Below are positions 55,556-64,000 of a stretch of DNA of 64,000 nt, in pieces. Under the pieces are notes generated by a model. That model had not been told where the DNA came from, ran no database searches, and saw only the letters and a list, made by a program, of their open reading frames with translations. Every line of letters begins with the position of its first letter. Within the stretch, counting starts at the first letter, position 1. The position numbers and the translations under genes were made by a program. Source of the DNA: Christiangramia crocea (lineage in GTDB: Bacteria; Bacteroidota; Bacteroidia; Flavobacteriales; Flavobacteriaceae); the NCBI RefSeq assembly GCF_022410465.1, contig NZ_JAJSON010000023.1, positions 1 through 64,000 on the forward strand, written 5' to 3'.

Positions 55556-56188
55556 CTAGATCTTATAGATACCTTCCTTAATGGCGAACATCACCAGTCC
55601 TACCCTGCTTTTTACTCCCAGCTTTCCAAAGAGGCTTTCCCTGTAATTATCAACGGTCTTGGGACTAAGAAACATTTCTTCAGCAACCTGTTTATAGGTG
55701 AGTTCACTACAGGCATGATTCAGGAATTCAAGTTCCCTTTCGGTAAGCTCTTCGTATTTCTTTTTTCTTTCTTCGTGGCTTAAAGCGTCTGAGATGGTCT
55801 GGTTTGAATAATATCCATTTCTCTCTATTGCGTTAAGCGCATATTCAAACTCCTCCGGCTCAATATCCTTTAGAAGATAACCCCGACAGCCAAGCCTGAG
55901 CATTTTAATAATGGTCTCATCTTCCTGGTCTACCGTAAGGGTCAAAACTTTCTGATCTGGTTTATTCTCCTTTAGCCATGCCATAGTATCCATCCCGTCC
56001 ATCACGGGCATTCTCATGTCGAGCAGAATGATATCCGGAAGCGGATTACCATCTTCTATGTATTTCACGAGCTCCTCGCCATTCTTGAAACAGTCAATAA
56101 CCTTGAAACCTTCAAAGGAATTCACCAGGATCTGAAGTGATTGTGCAAAAAGCTTATGATCGTCAACGATTATTATCGTCTTGTCCAT
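55556..56188 (-). CDS. NarL/LuxR-family response regulator
   Basis: 210 residues from ATG 56188 (MDKTIIIVDDHKLFAQS); a longer frame to 56239 lies inside the kinase gene and is unlikely. Receiver domain with DDH near residues 9-11, phosphoacceptor Asp in IILLDMRMPVMDG (~52-56) and Lys near residue 105; C-terminal HTH ELTYKQVAEEMFLSPKTVDNYRE (~160-185). Starts 26 nt inside the kinase gene end (translational coupling). Candidate regulator of the adjacent array (inference). Confidence 0.94.
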   Translation of the reverse strand: MDKTIIIVDDHKLFAQSLQILVNSFEGFKVIDCFKNGEELVKYIEDGNPLPDIILLDMRMPVMDGMDTMAWLKENKPDQKVLTLTVDQEDETIIKMLRLGCRGYLLKDIEPEEFEYALNAIERNGYYSNQTISDALSHEERKKKYEELTERELEFLNHACSELTYKQVAEEMFLSPKTVDNYRESLFGKLGVKSRVGLVMFAIKEGIYKI

Positions 56189-56969
56189 TGTTTTTAATCT
56201 TGGTTGGGTACCGTAAAGATAGCGAAGTTCCTTTACCAATCGAAGAATTCAGGTTAAAATCGGTATTGATCATCTCTGCCCTGCTTTGCATATTAAGAAG
56301 TCCTGAGCCTGCATCCTGATGTTCAACATCAAAACCCCTCCCGTCGTCACTAGCCTTGATCTGAAGATAATCTGGTGTATATTCAAAGGTGACCTTAAGT
56401 TTTGAAGCATCGGCATATTTGATCACATTGGAAAAAAATTCCTGCAATATCCTGAACAGGATAATGGCATCTTCCTGTTTTATTTTACAGGAATTCCCTT
56501 TTACTTTAAGCCTGGCATCCAGAACACCCAGCCTGTTAAATCGTTCCATTTCGTTTTCTACCGAACCTTCCAGGCCTTTATAATCTATCACTTCATTATT
56601 AAGAGAACGAGATAGAGCCCTTACTTCAGCCAGCGAATCGGCAACAAGTTTACGTACTTCTTTGAATGCATCCTGATTCTCTTCTACCACGGACTTGGTT
56701 AAAAGGTTGATTTGCATCTTGGCAATAGAAAGCAGCTGACCAATATTATCGTGCAGTTCCCAGCTCACATTCTTAAGGGTGGCTTCCTGTATCTCGAGCC
56801 TGGCATTGGAAAGCTCTGCCCTGAATTTTTGCTCAGCTTCATATTTCTCCTTTAGGATCTTATTCTTCCGCCTTTGGTAGGTAATAAAGAATAAAACGGT
56901 AAAGCCTGCCAGGAATAGTATGACAAGTATAAAATAAACTATAAGTAAGATCTCCTCCTTACGAAGCAT
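56163..56969 (-). CDS. HisKA_3-type sensor histidine kinase without a recognisable sensor domain
   Basis: 268 residues. One N-terminal helix (~8-32, ILLIVYFILVILFLAGFTVL) then a coiled-coil (~35-66) and HisKA_3 dimerisation/phosphoacceptor segment WELHDNIGQLLSIAKMQIN (~70-88, His at ~73), with the HATPase region from ~170 (N box ILQEFFSNVIKYADA; GRGFD; GSGLLNMQSRAE). It has no periplasmic sensor, so a partner membrane protein may provide the signal. Cognate regulator overlaps by 26 nt. Gap to the last seven-helix gene is 92 nt. Confidence 0.93.
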   Translation of the reverse strand: MLRKEEILLIVYFILVILFLAGFTVLFFITYQRRKNKILKEKYEAEQKFRAELSNARLEIQEATLKNVSWELHDNIGQLLSIAKMQINLLTKSVVEENQDAFKEVRKLVADSLAEVRALSRSLNNEVIDYKGLEGSVENEMERFNRLGVLDARLKVKGNSCKIKQEDAIILFRILQEFFSNVIKYADASKLKVTFEYTPDYLQIKASDDGRGFDVEHQDAGSGLLNMQSRAEMINTDFNLNSSIGKGTSLSLRYPTKIKNNGQDDNNR

Positions 56970-57061
56970 AGTATTGGCTGATTAGTCTAACAAGTATACA
57001 TAAAATCGGGCAATTATTTTAAAAGGCTGATTATCTTCGATTTTCTTTCAAATAGTAAACT

Positions 57062-57802
57062 TTACTTCTTATCAATCATTCCTTTTAATTTCAAAGACCT
57101 GTAATCTATATAGAAAGCCAGGGCAAATAGCAAATATAAAATAAGGTTTGCCAGTCTCAGAGTTCCATAGTAAACAGATACAAAAGCCGGGTTTTCTGAA
57201 TTAACGTAAGTAGAGTATATAAATAATGGCATGACGGTAAGGGTCCAGATCATTAAGCCTGCCGCCATATAAAAAGGAAGCTCTCCGAAAGAATCAAGTA
57301 TCCTGGAACTATTCAGCAACTCCATTAGATAGATGCCTGTGCATATTAATAATCCAAAGGCACCAACAATATAAATATAGGCTGAAATAGACTTAAAAAA
57401 ACCTTCCAGGACAAATATGCTTATAATAGCTGAAACTGCATAGAAGGCAGTGACATGTTTAATTATCCTACGTTTTCTTTTGGACTGAAGTTGCATCCTG
57501 AAGAAGCTGTAATAAAAATAATACTGAACGATCTTGAATATATTATACAACCACCAGTTCCGTTCAAAGCTTGAGCCTTCAGTAAAACCAAAAACCTTAT
57601 AATCGGTTACATAGGCGATAAGGGGATATAATCCCAGGATTTCCACCCAGACCACCAGCCATAAAAAATAAACAAAGAGGCGATACGATTTTGGGGTGTG
57701 TGGGTATTTCAACAAATAAATAGAACCAGAGATAGCCGCAATAAATTCAGCGGCATAACCTATATACAACTTGCTTTCAAAAAAATAATCCCAGAAATTC
57801 AT
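57062..57802 (-). CDS. Seven-helix membrane protein, paralog 1 (unknown function)
   Basis: 246 residues, about seven membrane helices by hydrophobicity, N-terminus MNFWDYFFESKLYIGYAAEF. Carries the family pattern AEFIAAISGSIYLLK near the start and SRILDSFGELPFYMAAGLMI followed by PLFI in the sixth-helix region. Together with the next upstream gene it forms a more diverged pair of the five paralogs. It is the gene closest to the histidine kinase. I do not recognise a named family. Confidence 0.8.
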   Translation of the reverse strand: MNFWDYFFESKLYIGYAAEFIAAISGSIYLLKYPHTPKSYRLFVYFLWLVVWVEILGLYPLIAYVTDYKVFGFTEGSSFERNWWLYNIFKIVQYYFYYSFFRMQLQSKRKRRIIKHVTAFYAVSAIISIFVLEGFFKSISAYIYIVGAFGLLICTGIYLMELLNSSRILDSFGELPFYMAAGLMIWTLTVMPLFIYSTYVNSENPAFVSVYYGTLRLANLILYLLFALAFYIDYRSLKLKGMIDKK

Positions 57803-57863
57803 TAATCAATAAGCAGGCAAAGAAATATACCTGTAATTTAATAAGCATTAATATATAATTAGC

Positions 57864-58589
57864 TTACAGCCTTTCTCTAATACACTTATTTCTATAATCC
57901 ACATAAAAACCCACAATATACATGGAATATAAAAATACATTGGCATATCTCATTACCACAGTATCTACCTTCATGAAATAGGGATTCTCAAGACTGAAGA
58001 AATCATCATAAATATCTAAAGGAAGTACACACAGACTCCACAATATCAATCCTACAGATATAAAAAATTTAATACCTCTGTGAAAATGAAGCACCCTGTC
58101 GGATTTTAAAAGCTCAAAATAAAAGTAGCCTATACAGACCAGTACAAAAAATGTCAGCAAGGTGCGAACATACAGGTCTGCTGAATAAAAAAACTCTCCT
58201 GAGGTTATAAAGCGGATGATGCTCCCAATAATAAGAATTATGAGAATAAGATTCAGGTTTCTTCTTATTCTGGCATTACTAAGGTTACGAATGAATAGCT
58301 GCGAAAAACATAAAGCATAAATAATCTGGTTAAAGTTCCCTATCCAGACATTTCTTCTAAAAACAGAATCTTTATAAAAACCCAGGACCTCGTAGTCATT
58401 AACCCAGGCATAGATTGGAATGAAGGCGTAAAATTCAACAAGGACTATGTAAAAAAGGTAGAATATAAAAAGTTTTAATTCCGGAGCGATGTATGGAGAT
58501 TTCTTCCAATAGAGAGTCCCGGCAACTGCTGCCAGTAACTCGAATATAAAATGTATAAACAATTTGGTTTCCTGGAAAAACTCAATCAT
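57864..58589 (-). CDS. Seven-helix membrane protein, paralog 2 (unknown function)
   Basis: 241 residues, about seven helices; MIEFFQETKLFIHFIFELLA, FELLAAVAGTLYWKK, DRVLHFHRGIKFFISVGLIL and VLPLDIYDDF follow the shared pattern. ATG start. The upstream 268 bp are filled by small-RNA module copy 1, with a minus-strand TAATTTTG box (58612-58619) about 22 nt before the ATG that could drive this gene. Followed after 61 nt by paralog 1. Confidence 0.8.
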   Translation of the reverse strand: MIEFFQETKLFIHFIFELLAAVAGTLYWKKSPYIAPELKLFIFYLFYIVLVEFYAFIPIYAWVNDYEVLGFYKDSVFRRNVWIGNFNQIIYALCFSQLFIRNLSNARIRRNLNLILIILIIGSIIRFITSGEFFYSADLYVRTLLTFFVLVCIGYFYFELLKSDRVLHFHRGIKFFISVGLILWSLCVLPLDIYDDFFSLENPYFMKVDTVVMRYANVFLYSMYIVGFYVDYRNKCIRERL

Positions 58590-58611
58590 TTTAAAAGAAT
58601 CAGTGGTTCTT

Positions 58612-58619
58612 CAAAATTA
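58612..58619 (-). promoter_or_regulatory. Putative minus-strand -7 box for paralog 2
   Basis: TAATTTTG on the minus strand (TAnnTTTG), 22 nt before the start at 58589. No convincing -33 TTG at 20 nt. It lies divergent from the plus-strand promoter of small-RNA copy 1, with the GGGG/CCCC palindrome between them. Confidence 0.4.
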
Positions 58620-58657
58620 GACTGAAAATAAGTTAATTCATAAAAAGCATTTGTAAA

Positions 58658-58704
58658 AAGGGGAATTATCCCCTTGATGAGTATTCCTATCCTGCCTACA
58701 TTTG
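58658..58704 (+). promoter_or_regulatory. Palindrome plus promoter of small-RNA copy 1
   Basis: AAGGGGA (58658-58664) / TCCCCTT (58669-58675) inverted repeat; TTG at 58674-58676 overlaps its right arm; 20-nt spacer; TACATTTG at 58697-58704. Same order and spacing as in copies 2 and 3. The palindrome overlapping the -33 element could be an operator that represses or activates both divergent promoters. Confidence 0.75.
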
Positions 58705-58708
58705 ATAT

Positions 58709-58821
58709 AGTCATTTTAGTAAAGCTAAAGTGTTTTGGGGCAAAAAAGTGTCGACCGAGGTTATGTTATAGTTCTGAGTAGGGTCTTTTCTATAACTTTA
58801 ATACCGAGGTGGCACTTTTTT
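58709..58821 (+). ncRNA. Small RNA, array copy 1
   Basis: Predicted start at the A of AGTC (5 nt after the -7 box), end in the T-run at 58816-58821: about 113 nt. 5' hairpin TTTAG (58715-58719) / CTAAA (58725-58729), GGGGC at 58737-58741, then a long hairpin: outer AAAAAAGTGTC / GGCACTTTTTT, GGT / ACC, inner GTTATAG (58765-58771) / CTATAAC (58790-58796), and an 18-nt loop TTCTGAGTAGGGTCTTTT. It ends 36 nt from the stop codon of the convergent seven-helix gene. No coding potential. I do not recognise the family. Confidence 0.72.
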
Positions 58822-58857
58822 ATTTTACTCTTTCTTCAATATATGAACGGAGAGTAT

Positions 58858-59592
58858 TTAGCTTATTGCCTTTTGCCCGGTTCTTTTTATCTCCAGGATC
58901 ATTTTGATAAATCCGAAAGCAAAGACCAAGTACATAAAGATATTTCCCAAATCCAGGGTCCAACCATATACATCACTGAAATCTTCACTTACCTTAATAT
59001 ATTTCTGAAAAATGAATAATGGCGTTATTCCCAGCTGGTAAATAAGGAGGCCAAATGAAATAAAAAGTGGCAACTCTCTTCGAAAATTGAGTATCCTATC
59101 TGTTCTTACTAATTCCAGGTAATATAAAGCTATTGAAATACAAATCAAGAAAGCTCCAAAAATATATACATAAGCTGAAAAGGCATTAAAAAATACATCA
59201 CTTGAGAAAAAATGAATTATTGAACTAAGTATAAAAATTAAGATCAGCCCTACTGTTAATCTTTTTAGTTTATTGTAATGCAATTGCATTACAAAATATA
59301 AAGTGAACATTGAAGATGAAATAAGTGTCAGGACATTGTAAATCCAAAATACACTCCTAAATGGAGTATCCTTTAAAAACTCTATATATTTATAATCATA
59401 GACCATAGTGTACAGCGCATAGATAATACCTGTAAGATCGATTATGAAAATCAAACTCAGACAAGAAACTATAAGCTTGTCTGCCCTGTTAACCGGCTTT
59501 TTTATGATTAGATAAAAGACCCCTGAAATTGCTGCTATAAGCTCAACTATATAAGTCGGATAGAGTCGATTTTCAATAATTATTTCCCACAA
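58858..59592 (-). CDS. Seven-helix membrane protein, paralog 3 (unknown function)
   Basis: 244 residues, about seven helices. Starts at TTG (MWEIIIENRLYPTYIVELIA); no in-frame ATG fits. Family features: ELIAAISGVFYLI, DRILNFRRELPLFISFGLLI, GITPLFIFQKYI, C-terminal MILEIKRTGQ. The 80-nt gap to paralog 4 suggests co-transcription as part of the small protein-7TM-7TM unit. Nearly the same length and motif spacing as paralogs 4 and 5. Confidence 0.82.
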   Translation of the reverse strand: MWEIIIENRLYPTYIVELIAAISGVFYLIIKKPVNRADKLIVSCLSLIFIIDLTGIIYALYTMVYDYKYIEFLKDTPFRSVFWIYNVLTLISSSMFTLYFVMQLHYNKLKRLTVGLILIFILSSIIHFFSSDVFFNAFSAYVYIFGAFLICISIALYYLELVRTDRILNFRRELPLFISFGLLIYQLGITPLFIFQKYIKVSEDFSDVYGWTLDLGNIFMYLVFAFGFIKMILEIKRTGQKAIS

Positions 59593-59672
59593 AATTAATT
59601 CCTGCTTCTTTCAATGTGAATATTAATTTTCCTTAAATTATCGGTGTTATTATAAACCTAATCTCTATTTAG

Positions 59673-60407
59673 TTAGATTAAATTCCTTCGCTGGGATCTT
59701 TTCATTTCCAGGATCATTTTAATAATGCCAAAAGCAAAGACCGAATACATAAATAAATTGGCAAAATCTAAAATATAGCCATATATATCCTCAAAATCAC
59801 TACTTACACTTATATACCTTTGAAACATAAAAAGAGGAGTAATGGCTAACTTGTAAATTAAAAGGCCAATTGAAATATAAATCGCCAACTCAGAACGATA
59901 TTTCAATATCCTGTCCGTCTTTATTAACTCCAGATAATAGATCGCTATCGAAAAACAAATTAAAAAAGCCCCCAAAACATACGGATAGGTGGCTGTAGTG
60001 GTAAAAAAATAATCTGTGAAGAAATAACTTATTATTGATGTAATTAAATAGCTCCCTGTTAAGAAGATAATTATCCTTTGCCAGAACTTGGAATTTAATT
60101 GATAAACAAAATATAAAGTATATGCCGTAGTTGTGATCAATGACAGAATATTAGCAATCCACCAATGGCTGGCAAATCGGGTCCCATTAATAAATTCAAA
60201 ATATCTGAATTCATATACATGCCCGTACAAGGCATAAATAATAGCCATTAGATCAAACACGAAAATAAAAATCAGGTAATAAATCAAAAACCTGTCAGCT
60301 TTTCGAGCATTTCTATCTACATAAAGATAAATACAACCAACTACCGCTGCTATGAACTCAAAGATATAAGTAGGATAGAGGCGATATTCAATAAAAGTTT
60401 CCCACAA
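59673..60407 (-). CDS. Seven-helix membrane protein, paralog 4 (unknown function)
   Basis: 244 residues, about seven helices; TTG start (MWETFIEYRLYPTYIFEFIA), only 14 nt after the stop of the small-protein gene. DRILKYRSELAIYISIGLLI and AITPLFMFQRYI carry the shared pattern. The C-terminus MILEMKRSQRRNLI is basic and probably cytoplasmic. Small-protein/7TM gene pairing is repeated at 61127-62236. Confidence 0.82.
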   Translation of the reverse strand: MWETFIEYRLYPTYIFEFIAAVVGCIYLYVDRNARKADRFLIYYLIFIFVFDLMAIIYALYGHVYEFRYFEFINGTRFASHWWIANILSLITTTAYTLYFVYQLNSKFWQRIIIFLTGSYLITSIISYFFTDYFFTTTATYPYVLGAFLICFSIAIYYLELIKTDRILKYRSELAIYISIGLLIYKLAITPLFMFQRYISVSSDFEDIYGYILDFANLFMYSVFAFGIIKMILEMKRSQRRNLI

Positions 60408-60421
60408 AATTGTTGATATTT

Positions 60422-60850
60422 TTAATAATCGCTAGGTGGCCATTTGGTACTACCGTCATTATAGGCATCTATATTGTAATTAGTTTCATAATTTGTATTT
60501 GCTAGGGCTAAGATAACATCGGAAGATCCTGAACCATTTTGGACCACTGCGTTTTTAGAAGCCGAAGATTCCTTTGTTGCAGCAAGGAAGATTGTGGAAA
60601 GCCCGTCTTTCTTTCCTTCATTATCTTCAGCCGCTAACCAGATACTTATTCCTGGATGCTCTACCCCCTGCTCAGCTGAAAGATCCCGTACGTAGTTTAT
60701 ATATTCCTGAAGTTCGTCCAGGCTGTACCATACTTCACATGAGTCCTGATATTCCTCATTTTCTTCAAATAATTTTCCCCTGGTATCTCTCCATTTCTTT
60801 TGGAGCTTTTTCGCTTTCTCAATCGTAATGCATTTGGCTGGTCGTTTCAT
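60422..60850 (-). CDS. Small soluble protein A, paralog of the 62236 gene (unknown function)
   Basis: 142 residues, no signal peptide or membrane helix. N-terminal helix ITIEKAKKLQKKW, then YQDSCEVWYSLDELQEYINYV, PGISIWLAAEDN, TIFLAATK and C-terminal YNIDAYNDGSTKWPPSDY. The same ordered motifs occur in the 62236 protein (AKKLLENW, ELKAYLEYV, PGVRIYFG, TVFLAPT, DAYNSGGTKFPP). It has a longer acidic/serine linker. Always immediately before a seven-helix gene. Unknown family. Confidence 0.82.
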   Translation of the reverse strand: MKRPAKCITIEKAKKLQKKWRDTRGKLFEENEEYQDSCEVWYSLDELQEYINYVRDLSAEQGVEHPGISIWLAAEDNEGKKDGLSTIFLAATKESSASKNAVVQNGSGSSDVILALANTNYETNYNIDAYNDGSTKWPPSDY

Positions 60851-60923
60851 AATTTAAATATTAAGGTTAGTAATACACTAAAAATAGAAATATTTGAGGT
60901 TAATCCTATAGATCAAAAATAAA

Positions 60924-60970
60924 AAGGGGAATTTCCCCCTTGGTAGCTATACTCTGCTACCTTACATTTG
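60924..60970 (+). promoter_or_regulatory. Palindrome plus promoter of small-RNA copy 2
   Basis: AAGGGGAATTTCCCCCTT palindrome (60924-60941), TTG at 60940-60942, 20-nt spacer, TACATTTG at 60963-60970. On the minus strand, copies 2 and 3 share TTAACC ... CTATTTTTA ... TACTAACCTT before the small-protein genes, a candidate divergent promoter/leader. Confidence 0.75.
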
Positions 60971-60974
60971 ATAC

Positions 60975-61089
60975 AGTCATTTTAGTAAAGCTAAAGTGTT
61001 TTGGGGCAAAAAAGTGTCGACCGAGGTTTTGTTATAGTTCTGAGTAGGGTCTTTTCTATAACTTTAATACCGAAGTGGCACTTTTTTTT
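60975..61089 (+). ncRNA. Small RNA, array copy 2
   Basis: About 115 nt, nearly identical to copy 1: AGTC start, TTTAG/CTAAA hairpin, GGGGCA, long hairpin with GTTATAG (61031-61037) / CTATAAC (61056-61062) and the same 18-nt loop, ending in T8 at 61082-61089. Ends 37 nt from the stop of the convergent 61127 gene. Differences from copy 1 lie mostly in the stem flanks and not in the loop. Confidence 0.72.
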
Positions 61090-61126
61090 ATATTTTAAAT
61101 AGGTGAAATTGAAGAATAATTTAGTT

Positions 61127-61855
61127 TCAGATACTACTTCTGGACATACCCATCTCCAGGATCATTTTAATAAACCCAAAAGCAAAAACCGAATACAAAA
61201 AGAAATTACCCAAATCAACCGTCCACCCGTAGACCGCCTCGAAATCATCACTTTCAACTATATAACGTTGAAAAATAAATAAAGGAGTTATCCCCAGCTG
61301 GTAAATAATGAGCCCTACTGATATATAAAGCGGCAACTCCCTTCGGAAGTTCAGTATACGATCTGTCCGTAACAGCTGCAGGTAGTAGGCTGCAATTGAG
61401 ATGCAAATCAAAAACGCTCCAAAGATATAGACGTAAGCTGAAGTCGTAAGAAAAAATACCTCATTGGTAAAGAAATGAACGATCGAACTTATAATATAGA
61501 TAGCCACTAAAGCTCCTATTGACTTTTTCAATTTTCGGGAATGTGTCTGCATTAAAAAGTAGATGGTAAATAAAGAACCCGTTAATAAAGTCAGGGTATT
61601 ATAGATCCAAAAATGAGTTCTAAATGGAGTTTCTTTTATGAATTCTATATATGCATAATCATACACATAATTATAAACACTATAGGTAGCGCCAAAAAGA
61701 TCTATTAGGAAAATCAAATTTATCGTAAATACTATCAGATAATCTGTCTTAACAGGTTCTTTCTTTGAATACAGATAAAAGATTCCGGAAATTGCCGCTA
61801 TCAATTCAAAGATATAAGTTGGATAGAGGCGATATTCAATAAAGGCATCCCACAC
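61127..61855 (-). CDS. Seven-helix membrane protein, paralog 5 (unknown function)
   Basis: 242 residues, helices near residues 11-29, 38-60, 84-104, 113-131, 141-163, 174-196 and 211-232. GTG start (MWDAFIEYRLYPTYIFELIA). ELIAAISGIFYLY, DRILNFRRELPLYISVGLII and GITPLFIFQRYI are near-identical to paralog 3. It starts 9 nt after small protein B (62236 gene), so they are one transcription unit with the minus-side promoter of module 3. Confidence 0.83.
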   Translation of the reverse strand: MWDAFIEYRLYPTYIFELIAAISGIFYLYSKKEPVKTDYLIVFTINLIFLIDLFGATYSVYNYVYDYAYIEFIKETPFRTHFWIYNTLTLLTGSLFTIYFLMQTHSRKLKKSIGALVAIYIISSIVHFFTNEVFFLTTSAYVYIFGAFLICISIAAYYLQLLRTDRILNFRRELPLYISVGLIIYQLGITPLFIFQRYIVESDDFEAVYGWTVDLGNFFLYSVFAFGFIKMILEMGMSRSSI

Positions 61856-61864
61856 AACTTCTTT

Positions 61865-62236
61865 CTATTGATATGGATCTGGCGGGAACTTTGTTCCTCC
61901 ACTGTTATATGCATCCAAAGAATAATTATTTTGAACCTCATCTAAATTAACGTCAGCTTCTGCATCTCCTCCTCCCTGGGTTGGCGCCAGAAATACGGTA
62001 TTATAACCTTTTTTAGGTCCAGGTCCGGTTCCATAACTTCCAAAATAGATCCTGACCCCTGGATTATCAGAAATATTATTTTCTACGTACTCTAAATACG
62101 CTTTTAATTCAGCTACTGTAAAATAAGTTTCATAAGTATCTTTATAATTTGGACCCATAGTTTTTCCGGGCCCACCCGGTTTTGTCCAGTTTTCTAAAAG
62201 TTTTTTTGCTTCTGAAGGTGAAATTTGTTGCCCCAT
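61865..62236 (-). CDS. Small soluble protein B (unknown function)
   Basis: 123 residues from ATG 62236 (MGQQISPSEAKKLLENWTKP). Pro/Gly-rich N-terminal part (GGPGKTMGPNY), then YETYFTVAELKAYLEYV, PGVRIYFGSYG, NTVFLAPTQGG, an acidic linker and YSLDAYNSGGTKFPPDPYQ. No signal peptide or helix for the membrane. Homologous to the 60850 protein. It appears to be a repeated pair with a seven-helix protein. Not recognised as a known family. Confidence 0.82.
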   Translation of the reverse strand: MGQQISPSEAKKLLENWTKPGGPGKTMGPNYKDTYETYFTVAELKAYLEYVENNISDNPGVRIYFGSYGTGPGPKKGYNTVFLAPTQGGGDAEADVNLDEVQNNYSLDAYNSGGTKFPPDPYQ

Positions 62237-62332
62237 AATTATTTTTTTTTGGAAGGCGATTAATAGCCTTAAAGGTTAGTAGTAAATTAAAAATAGTGAA
62301 ATTTTGGGTTAATTCTACGCACACAAAACAAA

Positions 62333-62379
62333 AAGGGGAATTTTCCCCTTGCTGACATTTAGAGGCCAACATACATTTG
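62333..62379 (+). promoter_or_regulatory. Palindrome plus promoter of small-RNA copy 3
   Basis: AAGGGGAA (62333-62340) / TTCCCCTT (62343-62350), a perfect 8-bp inverted repeat; TTG 62349-62351; 20-nt spacer; TACATTTG 62372-62379. Confidence 0.75.
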
Positions 62380-62383
62380 TTCA

Positions 62384-62496
62384 AGTCATTTTAGTAAAGC
62401 TAAAGTGTTTTGGGGCAAAAAAGTGTCGACTAAGGTTACGTTATAGTTCTGAGTAGGGTCTTTTCTATAACATCACTACCAAAGTGACACTTTTTT
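62384..62496 (+). ncRNA. Small RNA, array copy 3
   Basis: About 113 nt. Same elements as copies 1 and 2. Here GTGTC pairs with GACAC without the U-G wobble of copies 1-2 (where the arm is GGCAC), and a GGGGCA / TGCCCC outer pairing (to 62507) is possible across a 4-5 nt insertion after T6. Inner arms GTTATAG (62440-62446) / CTATAAC (62465-62471) and the 18-nt loop are unchanged. The upstream neighbour to the right is the broken pxpC copy. Confidence 0.7.
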
Positions 62497-62520
62497 ATTT
62501 TTGCCCCATTTAAGAAGTAT

Positions 62521-62638
62521 ATCACTCTAATTTAGTTCAGAATCTCCTAATATTCTAGTTTTCTGAAGATTATTTTTCCTTCTAATTTCTTTTACAAAAG
62601 TGTCTGCTGAGCTTTTTCTTCCAGGAAAAATGGAATAA
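62521..62638 (-). pseudogene. Duplicated 3' fragment of pxpC, broken
   Basis: The plus-strand sequence matches the true pxpC end at 62827-62944 with a constant 306-bp offset over its last ~90 bp (CTCTAATTTAG, CTAATATTCTA and CTGCTGAGCTTTTTC shared). Translated on the minus strand it gives KAQQTLL-stop-KKLEGKIIFRKLEY, compared with KAQQVLAQKMPGEKITFKKVEY in the intact gene, with an in-frame stop replacing Gln. Only the last ~33 codons are present, so it is a remnant of a tandem duplication that also carried a small-RNA module. Confidence 0.8.
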
Positions 62639-62654
62639 CTATTAAGCCTAAAAA

Positions 62655-62702
62655 AAGGGGGATTTTCCCCCTTTTTTTATAATATTTAACCATATAAATT
62701 GG
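62655..62702 (+). promoter_or_regulatory. Degenerate promoter/palindrome of small-RNA copy 4
   Basis: Palindrome GGGGGA (62657-62662) / TCCCCC (62666-62671) flanked by A6 and T7. Instead of TTG there is TTT, then 20 nt and TAAATTGG (62695-62702) in place of TACATTTG. The geometry is kept but both boxes are mutated, so transcription is probably weaker or lost. The palindrome with its T-tract could also act as a terminator. Confidence 0.55.
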
Positions 62703-62706
62703 CAAA

Positions 62707-62820
62707 TCCATTTAGAAACCGAAAAAATTTGGGGCAAAAAATATCGATCACGGTTGTTTTATAGTTCTGAGTAGAGTCTTTTCTATATACATACAACCAA
62801 ACCGAGTCCTTTTTTGCCCC
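62707..62820 (+). ncRNA. Small RNA, array copy 4 (diverged)
   Basis: Diverged copy: the 5' TTTAG/CTAAA hairpin is lost, but the long hairpin is perfect at its base, GGGGCAAAAAA (62731-62741) / TTTTTTGCCCC (62810-62820), with GGTTGT / ACAACC and TATAG / CTATA inside. The 18-nt loop differs by a single base (GAG for GGG). Ends 33 nt from the pxpC stop. The stem is kept while the sequence changed, which supports RNA pairing; with the weakened promoter it may be a pseudo-copy. Confidence 0.55.
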
Positions 62821-62852
62821 ATTGTATTTACTCTAATTTAGTCAAGAATCTT

Positions 62853-63713
62853 CTAATATTCTACCTTTTTGAAAGTTATTTTCTCTCCCGGCATCTTTTG
62901 CGCAAGCACCTGCTGAGCTTTTTCGGAAAGCTGAAGTATCCTGGGATAACCACCGGTAGTCTGGCAATCTTTCATAAGAACAATGAGCCTTCCTGAAGGT
63001 GTTAACTGAACCGTACCGGGAACGACGGGACCAGTGATAATTGGCTCCAGCTCATTCTCAAAATCTTCTTCCAACTGTACTGCCATCCGGTTGCTGTTCT
63101 TACCGGTCTTAAATGAAACGCTAAACAATTTTTGTCTCTGTTGGGCTGACAGTTCTCCGAACTCAGGCCCTGGATAAGTCTCGATCTCTGTAGATCCAAT
63201 ATAATTCAGATCTGTCTTCAGATGTGAATGAGTTTTCCTTTCTTCCATATCCTTAGAAAAAAAGAGCAGTTTCATTCCTTTTCTTAACCTGAAATCATCT
63301 GTAAGACTTTCATACCAACTCTTACTTCCCATCAGCTCCCCGGTTTGAAAGCCTCCCAATATCCCTATATAGGACCTAAAACCAGACTTTCTCGTTCCAA
63401 ATTTCAATACATCCCCACGATGGATAGGAATAATTTCATTAAGACTAACAGGGCTATCGTTAAGGATTGGAGAAAGATCGCCTCCACTGATGCTGATGGC
63501 TGTCGCGGCATTGAATTTCATCTGTGGTCCCTGGAAAGTAATCTCCAAAACCGAAGCATCCTGAGGATTTCCCAGGATAAGATTACATACCCGCATGGCA
63601 TACCTGTCCATCACCCCACTTTGAGGCACTCCATATTTCTGATAACCGAACCGCCCAAGATCCTGGATACTTGAAAATAATCCCGGTTGTAAAACTTCAA
63701 TTTCCGCTTTCAT
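62853..63713 (-). CDS. pxpC: 5-oxoprolinase subunit C (biotin-dependent carboxyltransferase-like)
   Basis: 286 residues. GLFSSIQDLGRFGYQKYGVP (~12-31) and SGVMDRYAMRVCNLILGN (~33-50) are typical of the KipA/PxpC family, together with GGDLSP, GFRSYIGILGG (~110-120) and LMKDCQTTGGYPRIL near the C-terminus. Acts with PxpA and PxpB in ATP-dependent opening of 5-oxoproline. Overlaps pxpB by 17 nt. pxpA is not downstream; the small-RNA array takes that place. Confidence 0.92.
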   Translation of the reverse strand: MKAEIEVLQPGLFSSIQDLGRFGYQKYGVPQSGVMDRYAMRVCNLILGNPQDASVLEITFQGPQMKFNAATAISISGGDLSPILNDSPVSLNEIIPIHRGDVLKFGTRKSGFRSYIGILGGFQTGELMGSKSWYESLTDDFRLRKGMKLLFFSKDMEERKTHSHLKTDLNYIGSTEIETYPGPEFGELSAQQRQKLFSVSFKTGKNSNRMAVQLEEDFENELEPIITGPVVPGTVQLTPSGRLIVLMKDCQTTGGYPRILQLSEKAQQVLAQKMPGEKITFKKVEY

Positions 63714-64000
63714 AAGTTTCAGATTTCAACTCATAATTTCCGTTTTCCACTTCTTCTTTAATCTTAAAAAATTCATCTTTCGAAACCGAATAAAACCTGA
63801 TCTTATCTCCAGCAGAAAAACGAGTTGGAGGATCCATATTTTTATCAAAAAGATCTACCGGACATCTGCCTAAAATCTGCCATCCCCCGGGACTTGATTT
63901 TGGATAAATTCCGGTCTGTTTTTCACCTATTCCTACCGAGCCTTTTTCTACCGATTTTCGTGGTGTTTTCTTTCTCGAAATATGTAGCCTTTCATCCAGC
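63697..64000 (-). CDS. pxpB: 5-oxoprolinase subunit B, 5' part outside the window
   Basis: Minus-strand frame open from the window edge, ending in TGA at 63697-63699 inside the start of pxpC. The ~100 visible residues include GIGEKQTGIYPKSSPGGWQI (the TPGGW motif of KipI/PxpB), GRCPVDLFDK and DPPTRFSAGDKIRFYSVS. Partner of PxpC. The N-terminal half is not visible. Confidence 0.88.
   Translation of the reverse strand, partial: LDERLHISRKKTPRKSVEKGSVGIGEKQTGIYPKSSPGGWQILGRCPVDLFDKNMDPPTRFSAGDKIRFYSVSKDEFFKIKEEVENGNYELKSETYESGN

What the first reader, a model, noticed from the sequence alone, without database searches (positions are those of the whole stretch)
58658..62820. A four-copy, independently promoted small RNA family punctuating a membrane-protein array
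Seen: four copies of one module, three with TTG-N20-TACATTTG (spacer exactly 20 nt in each), a conserved ~113-nt segment beginning AGTC, a TTTAG/CTAAA hairpin, GGGGCA, then a long hairpin with the inner stem GTTATAG/CTATAAC and an 18-nt loop (TTCTGAGTAGGGTCTTTT) that is identical in three copies and one base off in the fourth, ending in T6-T8. Promoter, conserved loop and terminator together suggest a discrete transcript, not a leader. Stem changes keep pairing (GGCAC to GACAC opposite GTGTC). I know no named RNA of this form. An invariant exposed loop suggests base-pairing with, or binding to, a common partner.
Basis: partly seen in the sequence, partly recalled or inferred. Interest (0 to 1): 0.88.

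Follow-up and report, generated by a model that had tools for sequence, protein, structure and literature searches.

The report
Conserved promoter-linked small RNA family, multicopy
This stretch carries several copies of what looks like an uncatalogued small regulatory RNA that a group of marine flavobacteria keep at one fixed chromosomal place, with its own switch-like promoter, next to a two-component signalling system; what it regulates is not yet known.

Summary
Four modules lie at 58709-58822, 60975-61088, 62384-62497 and 62706-62815 (+); no other copy was found in the genome. No Rfam family matches above cut-off. The RNA matches in 24 of 24 genomes of the genus (one only weakly) and in three other Flavobacteriaceae genera, 4 of 237 genera sampled. 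Across 46 copies the fold has compensatory changes, and G-U outnumber A-C cells 118 to 12, favouring the + strand. The "18-nt loop" is really a GUAGGG hexaloop (43 of 46) with closing pairs that differ between genera but stay paired. The predicted start (5 nt after TAnnTTTG) is where conservation begins; a terminator ends it. A GGGG-N6-CCCC palindrome sits exactly 23 nt before the -7 box in 52 of 53 scorable copies (63 tested). That composite is rare elsewhere; in two genera its only other recurrent site precedes a ~35-aa membrane-peptide ORF. All 32 loci examined share synteny: response regulator (usually kinase, 7TM, small protein) - RNA - pxpC. Best reading: a trans-acting sRNA family under a palindrome-binding regulator, plausibly the adjacent NarL/GacA-type response regulator. 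RNA family well supported; transcription, regulator and targets inferred. New RNA family of a known kind.

The parts
58660..58673 (.). palindrome GGGGAATTATCCCC, copy 1 (putative operator)
58674..58704 (+). promoter copy 1: TTG-N20-TACATTTG
   Evidence: TAnnTTTG box at -12 to -5 in F. psychrophilum (PMC9723704, passage)
58709..58822 (+). sRNA copy 1 (predicted start at 58709, terminator at the 3' end)
58778..58783 (+). GUAGGG hexaloop, copy 1
60926..60939 (.). palindrome, copy 2 (one mismatch to GGGGAWWWWTCCCC)
60940..60970 (+). promoter copy 2
60975..61088 (+). sRNA copy 2
61044..61049 (+). GUAGGG hexaloop, copy 2
62335..62348 (.). palindrome GGGGAATTTTCCCC, copy 3
62349..62379 (+). promoter copy 3
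62384..62497 (+). sRNA copy 3
62453..62458 (+). GUAGGG hexaloop, copy 3
62657..62671 (.). palindrome-like GGGGGATTTTCCCCC, copy 4
62706..62815 (+). diverged sRNA copy 4 (loop GUAGAG; no clear -7 box)
61865..62236 (-). small protein 'c1p' (123 aa), divergent from copy 3
60422..60850 (-). small protein 'c1p' (142 aa), divergent from copy 2
61127..61855 (-). seven-helix membrane protein
59673..60407 (-). seven-helix membrane protein paralogue
58858..59592 (-). seven-helix membrane protein paralogue
57864..58589 (-). seven-helix membrane protein paralogue
57062..57802 (-). seven-helix membrane protein paralogue
56163..56969 (-). HisKA_3 sensor histidine kinase
55556..56239 (-). NarL/GacA-type response regulator (REC + LuxR HTH); suggested regulator of the palindrome (the ORF as listed starts at an upstream TTG; true start probably later)
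62853..63713 (-). PxpC-like carboxyltransferase (CT_A_B), conserved flank of the locus

Best explanation
A family of ~112-nt trans-acting regulatory RNAs. Each intact copy is transcribed on the + strand from its own sigma-A-type promoter and ends at its own terminator. A short 5' hairpin, a G-rich linker (UGUUUUGGGGCA) and a long 3' hairpin present a GUAGGG hexaloop as the likely contact element (an mRNA seed or a protein-binding loop). Transcription is probably switched by a dimeric factor on the GGGG-N6-CCCC palindrome 23 nt before the -7 box. The most plausible factor is the NarL/GacA-type response regulator kept beside the RNA in every locus examined. Extra copies probably arose mostly by duplication of an (RNA, small protein, 7TM) unit and would raise dosage. 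Shown by sequence: family, structure, promoter geometry, synteny; supported: strand. Inferred: transcription itself, the regulator, trans action, and the hexaloop as contact.
For: RNA in 24 of 24 genomes of the genus (one, 67% complete, only a weak partial match at E 0.1), and 6 of 6, 15 of 15 (one at E 0.004) and 11 of 16 in three other genera. Structure on 46 copies: 95.4% of 1280 cells paired, 151 cells changed on both sides against 48.8 +/- 7.0 in shuffles, 0 of 500 as high; slid controls at most 57.3%. G-U 118 against A-C 12 cells, favouring the + strand. Hexaloop GUAGGG in 43 of 46; closing pairs GA/UC, UG/UA or UG/CA, AG/CU by genus. Palindrome to -7 box distance 23 nt in 52 of 53 scorable copies. 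Conservation is concentrated in palindrome, promoter and RNA, and falls off just downstream, so there is no conserved minus-strand promoter there. Composite promoter: reversed-pattern control 0 in each genome listed; only 8 of 389 sampled family genomes without the RNA have it. Synteny in 32 of 32 loci with the response regulator always present. In L105 the RNA with its promoter is inverted relative to the genes and remains intact, which argues against a cis or antisense role.
Against: No transcript data. The fold was drawn for the + strand, and 58 of the 118 G-U cells sit in two column pairs, so the strand count is supportive, not decisive; the minus strand folds with similar z-scores. The response regulator is kept together with equally conserved neighbours (amidase-like gene, PxpC), so synteny does not single it out. 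The palindrome alone is not rare (18 sites with at most one mismatch in this genome against 4 for the reversed pattern). The exact composite is missing in 5 of 24 genomes of the genus and in both g101 genomes and one of two g112 genomes of the family sample, where palindrome arms vary; in the three g101 loci examined the kinase is also missing. No conserved target was found near the locus. The G-rich linker is lost in some g112 copies. The hexaloop closing pairs have few states, by lineage, hence few independent events.
Confidence: 0.58

Rival explanations
1. The modules are only terminators or insulators between minus-strand operons: the outer A6...U6 hairpin and the GGGG...CCCC dyad end transcripts from both sides, and no functional + strand RNA exists.
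For: The outer stem is a bidirectional terminator by sequence; the RNA 3' ends lie close to the 3' end of pxpC or a 7TM gene; the minus strand folds well too; terminator-like sites are enriched in the region (20 found, 5.9 expected); GGGG...CCCC dyads also follow two other genes in this genome.
Against: A terminator needs no fixed TTG/TAnnTTTG box with 23-nt phasing, no conserved 5' hairpin and hexaloop, and no excess of G-U over A-C cells. In L105 the element is inverted and intact. In L151 and L160 the palindrome-promoter composite lies next to a gene on the opposite strand, where it cannot be that gene's terminator.
Confidence: 0.08
2. The RNA titrates an RNA-binding protein through GUAGGG and the GGGG linker, working like the Rsm/CsrB decoy RNAs.
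For: Short near-invariant G-rich loop with a freely varying stem; several copies; adjacent GacA/NarL-type regulator; palindrome upstream, as described for rsmX/Y/Z (PMC2375449, one passage); duplicated rsm genes known (PMC7911923, abstract).
Against: No repeated GGA motifs, a single apical loop per long hairpin, and no candidate protein identified. Presence of CsrA in this genome was not tested.
Confidence: 0.25
3. Feedback RNA: the loop pairs with codons ~4-9 of the adjacent histidine-kinase mRNA and represses it.
For: Kinase start region gives the strongest mean pairing of 24 gene/segment combinations (mean z -1.88; 10 of 25 below -2); up to 16 contiguous pairs, -22 kcal/mol; 9 of 24 at p < 0.05 against synonymous recodings.
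Against: Not conserved: L114, L115, L121 and three g32 loci have p 0.57-0.92, although L114 and L115 carry the same loop as the paired genomes; the genomes are related, so the p-values are not independent; the three g101 loci keep the RNA without a recognised kinase.
Confidence: 0.1
4. The transcript encodes a micropeptide (RTG-UUU-UGG-GGC-AAA-AAA, M/V-FWGKK...).
For: RTG in 43 of 46 copies (32 GTG, 11 ATG).
Against: Frame ends after 1 to about 30 codons, shifts in L119/L120, stops within 5 codons in several g112 copies; the RTG purine is explained by the U-G/U-A stem pair.
Confidence: 0.04

Closest known systems
GacA-controlled RsmX/RsmY/RsmZ (and CsrB/C) sRNAs
   Same: multicopy sRNAs (one rsmX copy is 110 nt, PMC7911923 abstract), palindromic upstream site (PMC2375449, one passage), LuxR-HTH response regulator; the regulator here scores with UvrY/SirA/GacA and NarL models, below their cut-offs
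   Different: No repeated GGA motifs; single GUAGGG hexaloop; no CsrA link shown; no match to any Rfam family
Qrr sRNAs of Vibrio (recalled)
   Same: several near-identical copies fed by one phosphorelay
   Different: Qrr use sigma-54 and Hfq (recalled); no Rfam match here
Rfp18 of Flavobacterium psychrophilum (PMC9723704; abstract and passages seen)
   Same: structured, conserved sRNA from the same bacterial family
   Different: Described with a pairing third stem-loop; this RNA has two hairpins.
6S-Flavo RNA (RF01685)
   Same: flavobacterial hairpin RNA of similar length
   Different: The genome has its own 6S-Flavo elsewhere (C14:40220-40350, 99.2 bits); no 6S match here

Membership tests
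Any Rfam 15 family | score above the gathering cut-off | tested here: not met
   0 matches in the whole window; E <= 10 scan of 56000-64000 gives 11 hits, all far below cut-offs; loci from three other genera (L071, L073, L074) give none at E <= 1
6S-Flavo RNA | match to RF01685 | tested here: not met
   the genome's only hit is on contig C14
Rsm/CsrB-type decoy RNA | repeated GGA motifs in loops (recalled) | tested here: not met
   single hexaloop GUAGGG, no GGA in it, by inspection of alignment A6
Rsm/CsrB-type decoy RNA | control by a GacA-type regulator through an upstream palindrome | tested here: inconclusive
   palindrome at fixed spacing and NarL/GacA-class regulator adjacent; binding not testable here
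Qrr sRNA | sigma-54 promoter and Hfq dependence (recalled) | tested here: inconclusive
   promoter fits the sigma-A type TTG-N20-TAnnTTTG instead; Hfq not tested
Rfp18 | sequence homology | not tested
Mobile or dispersed palindrome (REP/MITE-like) | copies scattered in unrelated contexts | tested here: not met
   4 copies found in the genome, all at this locus; same synteny in 32 of 32 loci
trans-acting bacterial sRNA | own promoter and terminator by sequence, independent of neighbouring genes' orientation | tested here: met
trans-acting bacterial sRNA | observed transcript and target | not testable with these tools
   no RNA-seq held; local pairing screen inconclusive

The most novel reading that the evidence does not exclude
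A Bacteroidota counterpart of Gac/Rsm: 7TM membrane proteins and a small partner protein feed a HisKA_3 kinase and NarL-type regulator, which acts on a GGGG-N6-CCCC box to drive one to four copies of a new sRNA (and, in two genera, a ~35-aa membrane peptide). The GUAGGG hexaloop then engages one conserved partner, perhaps an unknown RNA-binding protein. The same box before a different short stretch beside asnS in three other genera would mean that the switch, not the RNA, is the ancestral part.
Probability: 0.22. Interest if true: 0.82.

Novelty: new member of a known kind. Interest (0 to 1): 0.62.

Why it matters
In the papers I could search, one flavobacterial sRNA (Rfp18) had been followed by deletion. 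The RNA here is found in all sampled genomes of its genus (one only weakly), has compensatory evidence for its fold, an exactly phased operator-like palindrome, and a candidate regulator next door. That would make a signal-to-sRNA pathway in a marine flavobacterial group directly testable, including whether a hexaloop of six nucleotides is the functional contact.

Tried and rejected
Rfam at the gathering threshold and at E <= 10 or 1: no match above cut-off for the RNA. 6S-Flavo rejected. Viral contigs: no exact match to the stem-loop pattern. sigma-70 consensus scan uninformative (33 found, 29.4 expected).

Local target screen: the loop with the kinase start stood out, but synonymous recoding and lack of conservation made it a weak lead. 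Duplex energies used exposed segments only, without accessibility; nulls were mononucleotide shuffles or synonymous recodings. Only loci represented in alignment A6 were used. A genome-wide target search was not done. Micropeptide reading rejected. R3 with filters off does not recognise the other palindrome-driven stretches (best E 0.096, in L134 at 1656-1715). The small protein's fold has no significant PDB match (best E 1.9); the 7TM model (pLDDT 90.8) resembles rhodopsin/GPCR bundles only weakly (best E 0.04). Literature: listings (one search returned none) named no paper that I recognised as describing this RNA; only open-licence papers were searchable, I saw listings, one paper's abstract and passages (PMC9723704), one passage (PMC2375449) and one abstract (PMC7911923), and no supplements.

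Rows set aside: 3 of 66 distinct copies had too little upstream sequence and 10 lacked a perfect GGGG-N6-CCCC (7), the -7 box (2) or both (1), leaving 53; the -7 test allowed a relaxed form TAnnTT(T/C)(G/A). Of the nine composite sites outside RNA-bearing genera, displayed seven; L208 and L211 were only printed. Synteny used 32 loci: 20 of 24 genomes of the genus, 3 of 6 in g101, 4 of 15 in g32, and 5 of the 11 RNA-positive (16 searched) in g112. Alignment A6 holds 46 copies that I chose; not every copy known. Gene names asnS, odhB, IlvD, AraC, retropepsin-like and RND-type are my recognition from the translations, not a family search.
Full report
OBSERVATION. The four modules are real. They align over palindrome, promoter, RNA and terminator. 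The loop 18-mer (one position free) occurs four times on the + strand of this contig and, apart from one two-mismatch hit elsewhere, not again in the 3.9-Mb genome. The structural model finds four copies. Rfam gives no match at the gathering threshold and only sub-threshold hits at E <= 10.

DISTRIBUTION. An exact 18-mer scan of genome contigs returned 34 stretches, 16 of them in records titled Christiangramia or Gramella. With the RNA model at E <= 1, those 16 match and the other 18 do not. With model R1, 24 of 24 genomes of the window's genus match, 35 matches, one to four per genome; one 67%-complete genome has only weak partial matches at E 0.1. With model R2, 8 of 397 family genomes match, in 4 of 237 genera. 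Within the three other genera 6 of 6, 15 of 15 (one at E 0.004) and 11 of 16 match. A broader model, R3, found the same 8 of 397. The stricter filters used above 40 genomes may miss distant members. The genus name rests on record titles; the other three genera are unnamed here.

STRUCTURE. On 35 distinct copies (alignment A4, fitted to the model), 13 of 33 pairs show double-sided changes, 0 of 500 shuffles as high. On a plain MAFFT alignment of 46 copies from four genera (A6), my 28-pair structure has 95.4% of 1280 cells paired, 151 double-change cells against 48.8 in shuffles, and a covariation score of 0.366 against 0.147 (0 of 500 each); the number of pairs with double change is less extreme (12 against 9.0; 9 of 500). 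Slid versions reach at most 57.3%. The outer stem hardly varies, so covariation does not test it. The apical stem (7 of 7 pairs) and the two pairs closing the hexaloop (100% paired) vary compensatorily. By genus the closing pairs are GA/UC (g1, g101), UG/UA or UG/CA (g32) and AG/CU (g112) around GUAGGG, so these last changes reflect few events.

STRAND. Read as + strand RNA, 1221 of 1280 cells pair; as minus strand, 1115; G-U cells 118, A-C cells 12. Caveats: the structure was drawn for the + strand; 58 of the 118 G-U cells lie in two column pairs (6/23 and 54/118); single-sequence folding gives similar z-scores on both strands. The promoter evidence points the same way.

PROMOTER. In F. psychrophilum the sigma-A box TAnnTTTG lies at -12 to -5 (PMC9723704, passage). 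Applied here, the starts fall on 58709, 60975 and 62384, where conservation begins. Per-column identity is high in the two palindrome arms (-34 to -53), in parts of the -7 box, and in the RNA; it falls to background further upstream and from a few bases downstream of the terminator. Of 66 distinct copies, 63 had enough upstream sequence; 53 have both GGGG-N6-CCCC and a recognised -7 box, 52 of them with exactly 23 nt between (one 17); 10 lack one or both in that form.

HOW SPECIFIC IS THE PALINDROME-PROMOTER COMPOSITE? The palindrome alone is not: 18 sites with at most one mismatch in this genome against 4 for the reversed pattern. The composite is. In the genus: 30 sites in 19 of 24 genomes, of which 23 precede the RNA; the other 7 precede a short membrane-peptide ORF. 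In g32: 25 sites in 14 of 15 genomes, 14 before the RNA and 11 before the corresponding ORF. A script found the peptide ending (LN...LF) in 17 of these 18 non-RNA sites; in L161 it reported another frame, and I read the ending there by eye. A protease motif lies within the fetched piece in 18 of 18, and a convergent odhB-like gene in 15 of 18. In L151 and L160 an opposite-strand gene lies directly upstream. In the family sample, 8 of 389 genomes without the RNA have the composite, with 9 sites. Four of these, in three genera, lie beside an asnS-like gene and head a different stretch that ends in a terminator-like hairpin by eye; R3 does not recognise them. The reversed composite gave 0 in each genome listed. 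The 7 non-RNA sites in the genus also use 21-22 nt between CCCCTT and the box, although 17-23 were allowed. I read this as a real regulatory element with a very small regulon. Which protein reads it is inference.

NEIGHBOURHOOD. In 32 of 32 loci examined (the window plus 31 fetched) the RNA lies between the response-regulator side and the pxpC operon. Seven-helix proteins occur in 29 loci (50 genes), the small protein in 27 (34 genes), the kinase in 29. The usual order is RR-HK-7TM-c1p on one strand with the RNA divergent from c1p. Multicopy loci mostly repeat a 7TM-c1p-RNA unit; in L106 two RNAs stand together without genes between. Three loci of g101 keep RR and RNA without a recognised HK, 7TM or c1p; tblastn gives only weak hits, among them a 31-33-residue kinase-like stretch in L104 at E 0.16-0.35. 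In L105 the RNA is inverted. Response-regulator orthologues keep the REC aspartate region and the HTH, and the window's one scores with MctR, NarL and UvrY/SirA/GacA models below the equivalog cut-offs. The 7TM model is confident (pLDDT 90.8); the small-protein model is moderate (79.1); neither has a significant PDB match.

MECHANISM. The evidence shows a conserved structured RNA gene with its own promoter and terminator by sequence, maintained at one locus but in either orientation; this fits a trans-acting sRNA. The most constrained exposed element common to the four genera is GUAGGG; the linker GGGG is kept in nearly all g1 copies, in g101, in most of g32 and in part of g112. Whether the loop meets an mRNA or a protein is open. 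The kinase mRNA start is the only local candidate and is not conserved enough to accept.

KNOWN OR NEW. It works most like GacA-Rsm or Qrr systems in layout, but fails the GGA-loop test for Rsm/Csr and has no Rfam match, so it is filed as a new RNA family of a known kind. Rfp18 (abstract and passages seen) is the nearest studied flavobacterial sRNA I found; homology could not be tested.

Noticed in passing
L152 (own genome C7:45182) and 17 orthologous sites: L151, L156, L160, L161, L162, L165, L181, L183, L185, L187, L190, L192, L193, L195, L198, L200, L201: The same palindrome-promoter composite precedes a conserved ORF of roughly 34-44 codons for a single-span membrane peptide; protease motif in the piece in 18 of 18, convergent odhB-like gene in 15 of 18. 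Several orthologues in the window's genus lack an obvious ATG start.
   Followed up: partly
L209, L210, L212, L207 at the composite site: In three other genera the composite heads a different short stretch between asnS-like and RND-type genes; L209/L210/L212 share GUAGGUUUGGGG(G)AACC-like sequence. No Rfam match above cut-off; L212 has a sub-threshold PyrR hit on the same strand (36.5 bits against 54, E 0.12).
   Followed up: partly
L137:1500-1990 (own genome C29:61595): A further GGGGATTATTCCCC 23 nt before TACTTTAG, between an AraC-type gene and two near-identical tandem small ORFs (MTAFSKIIENFSSLNDG...), possibly duplicated peptide genes.
   Followed up: partly
L205 (genus g226): Composite site in front of a c1p-like lipoprotein followed by a multi-helix membrane protein (by eye), suggesting that the small-protein/membrane-protein pair exists without this RNA.
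   Followed up: no
window:57062-61855: Five paralogues of an unnamed seven-helix membrane protein family (no Pfam match above cut-off for the five; one tested against NCBIfam, none), with copy number varying between species.
   Followed up: partly
window:62524-62618 and 62830-62924: A 95-nt direct repeat (77%) whose second copy covers the 3' end of pxpC; probably a remnant of the duplication that made copy 4.
   Followed up: no
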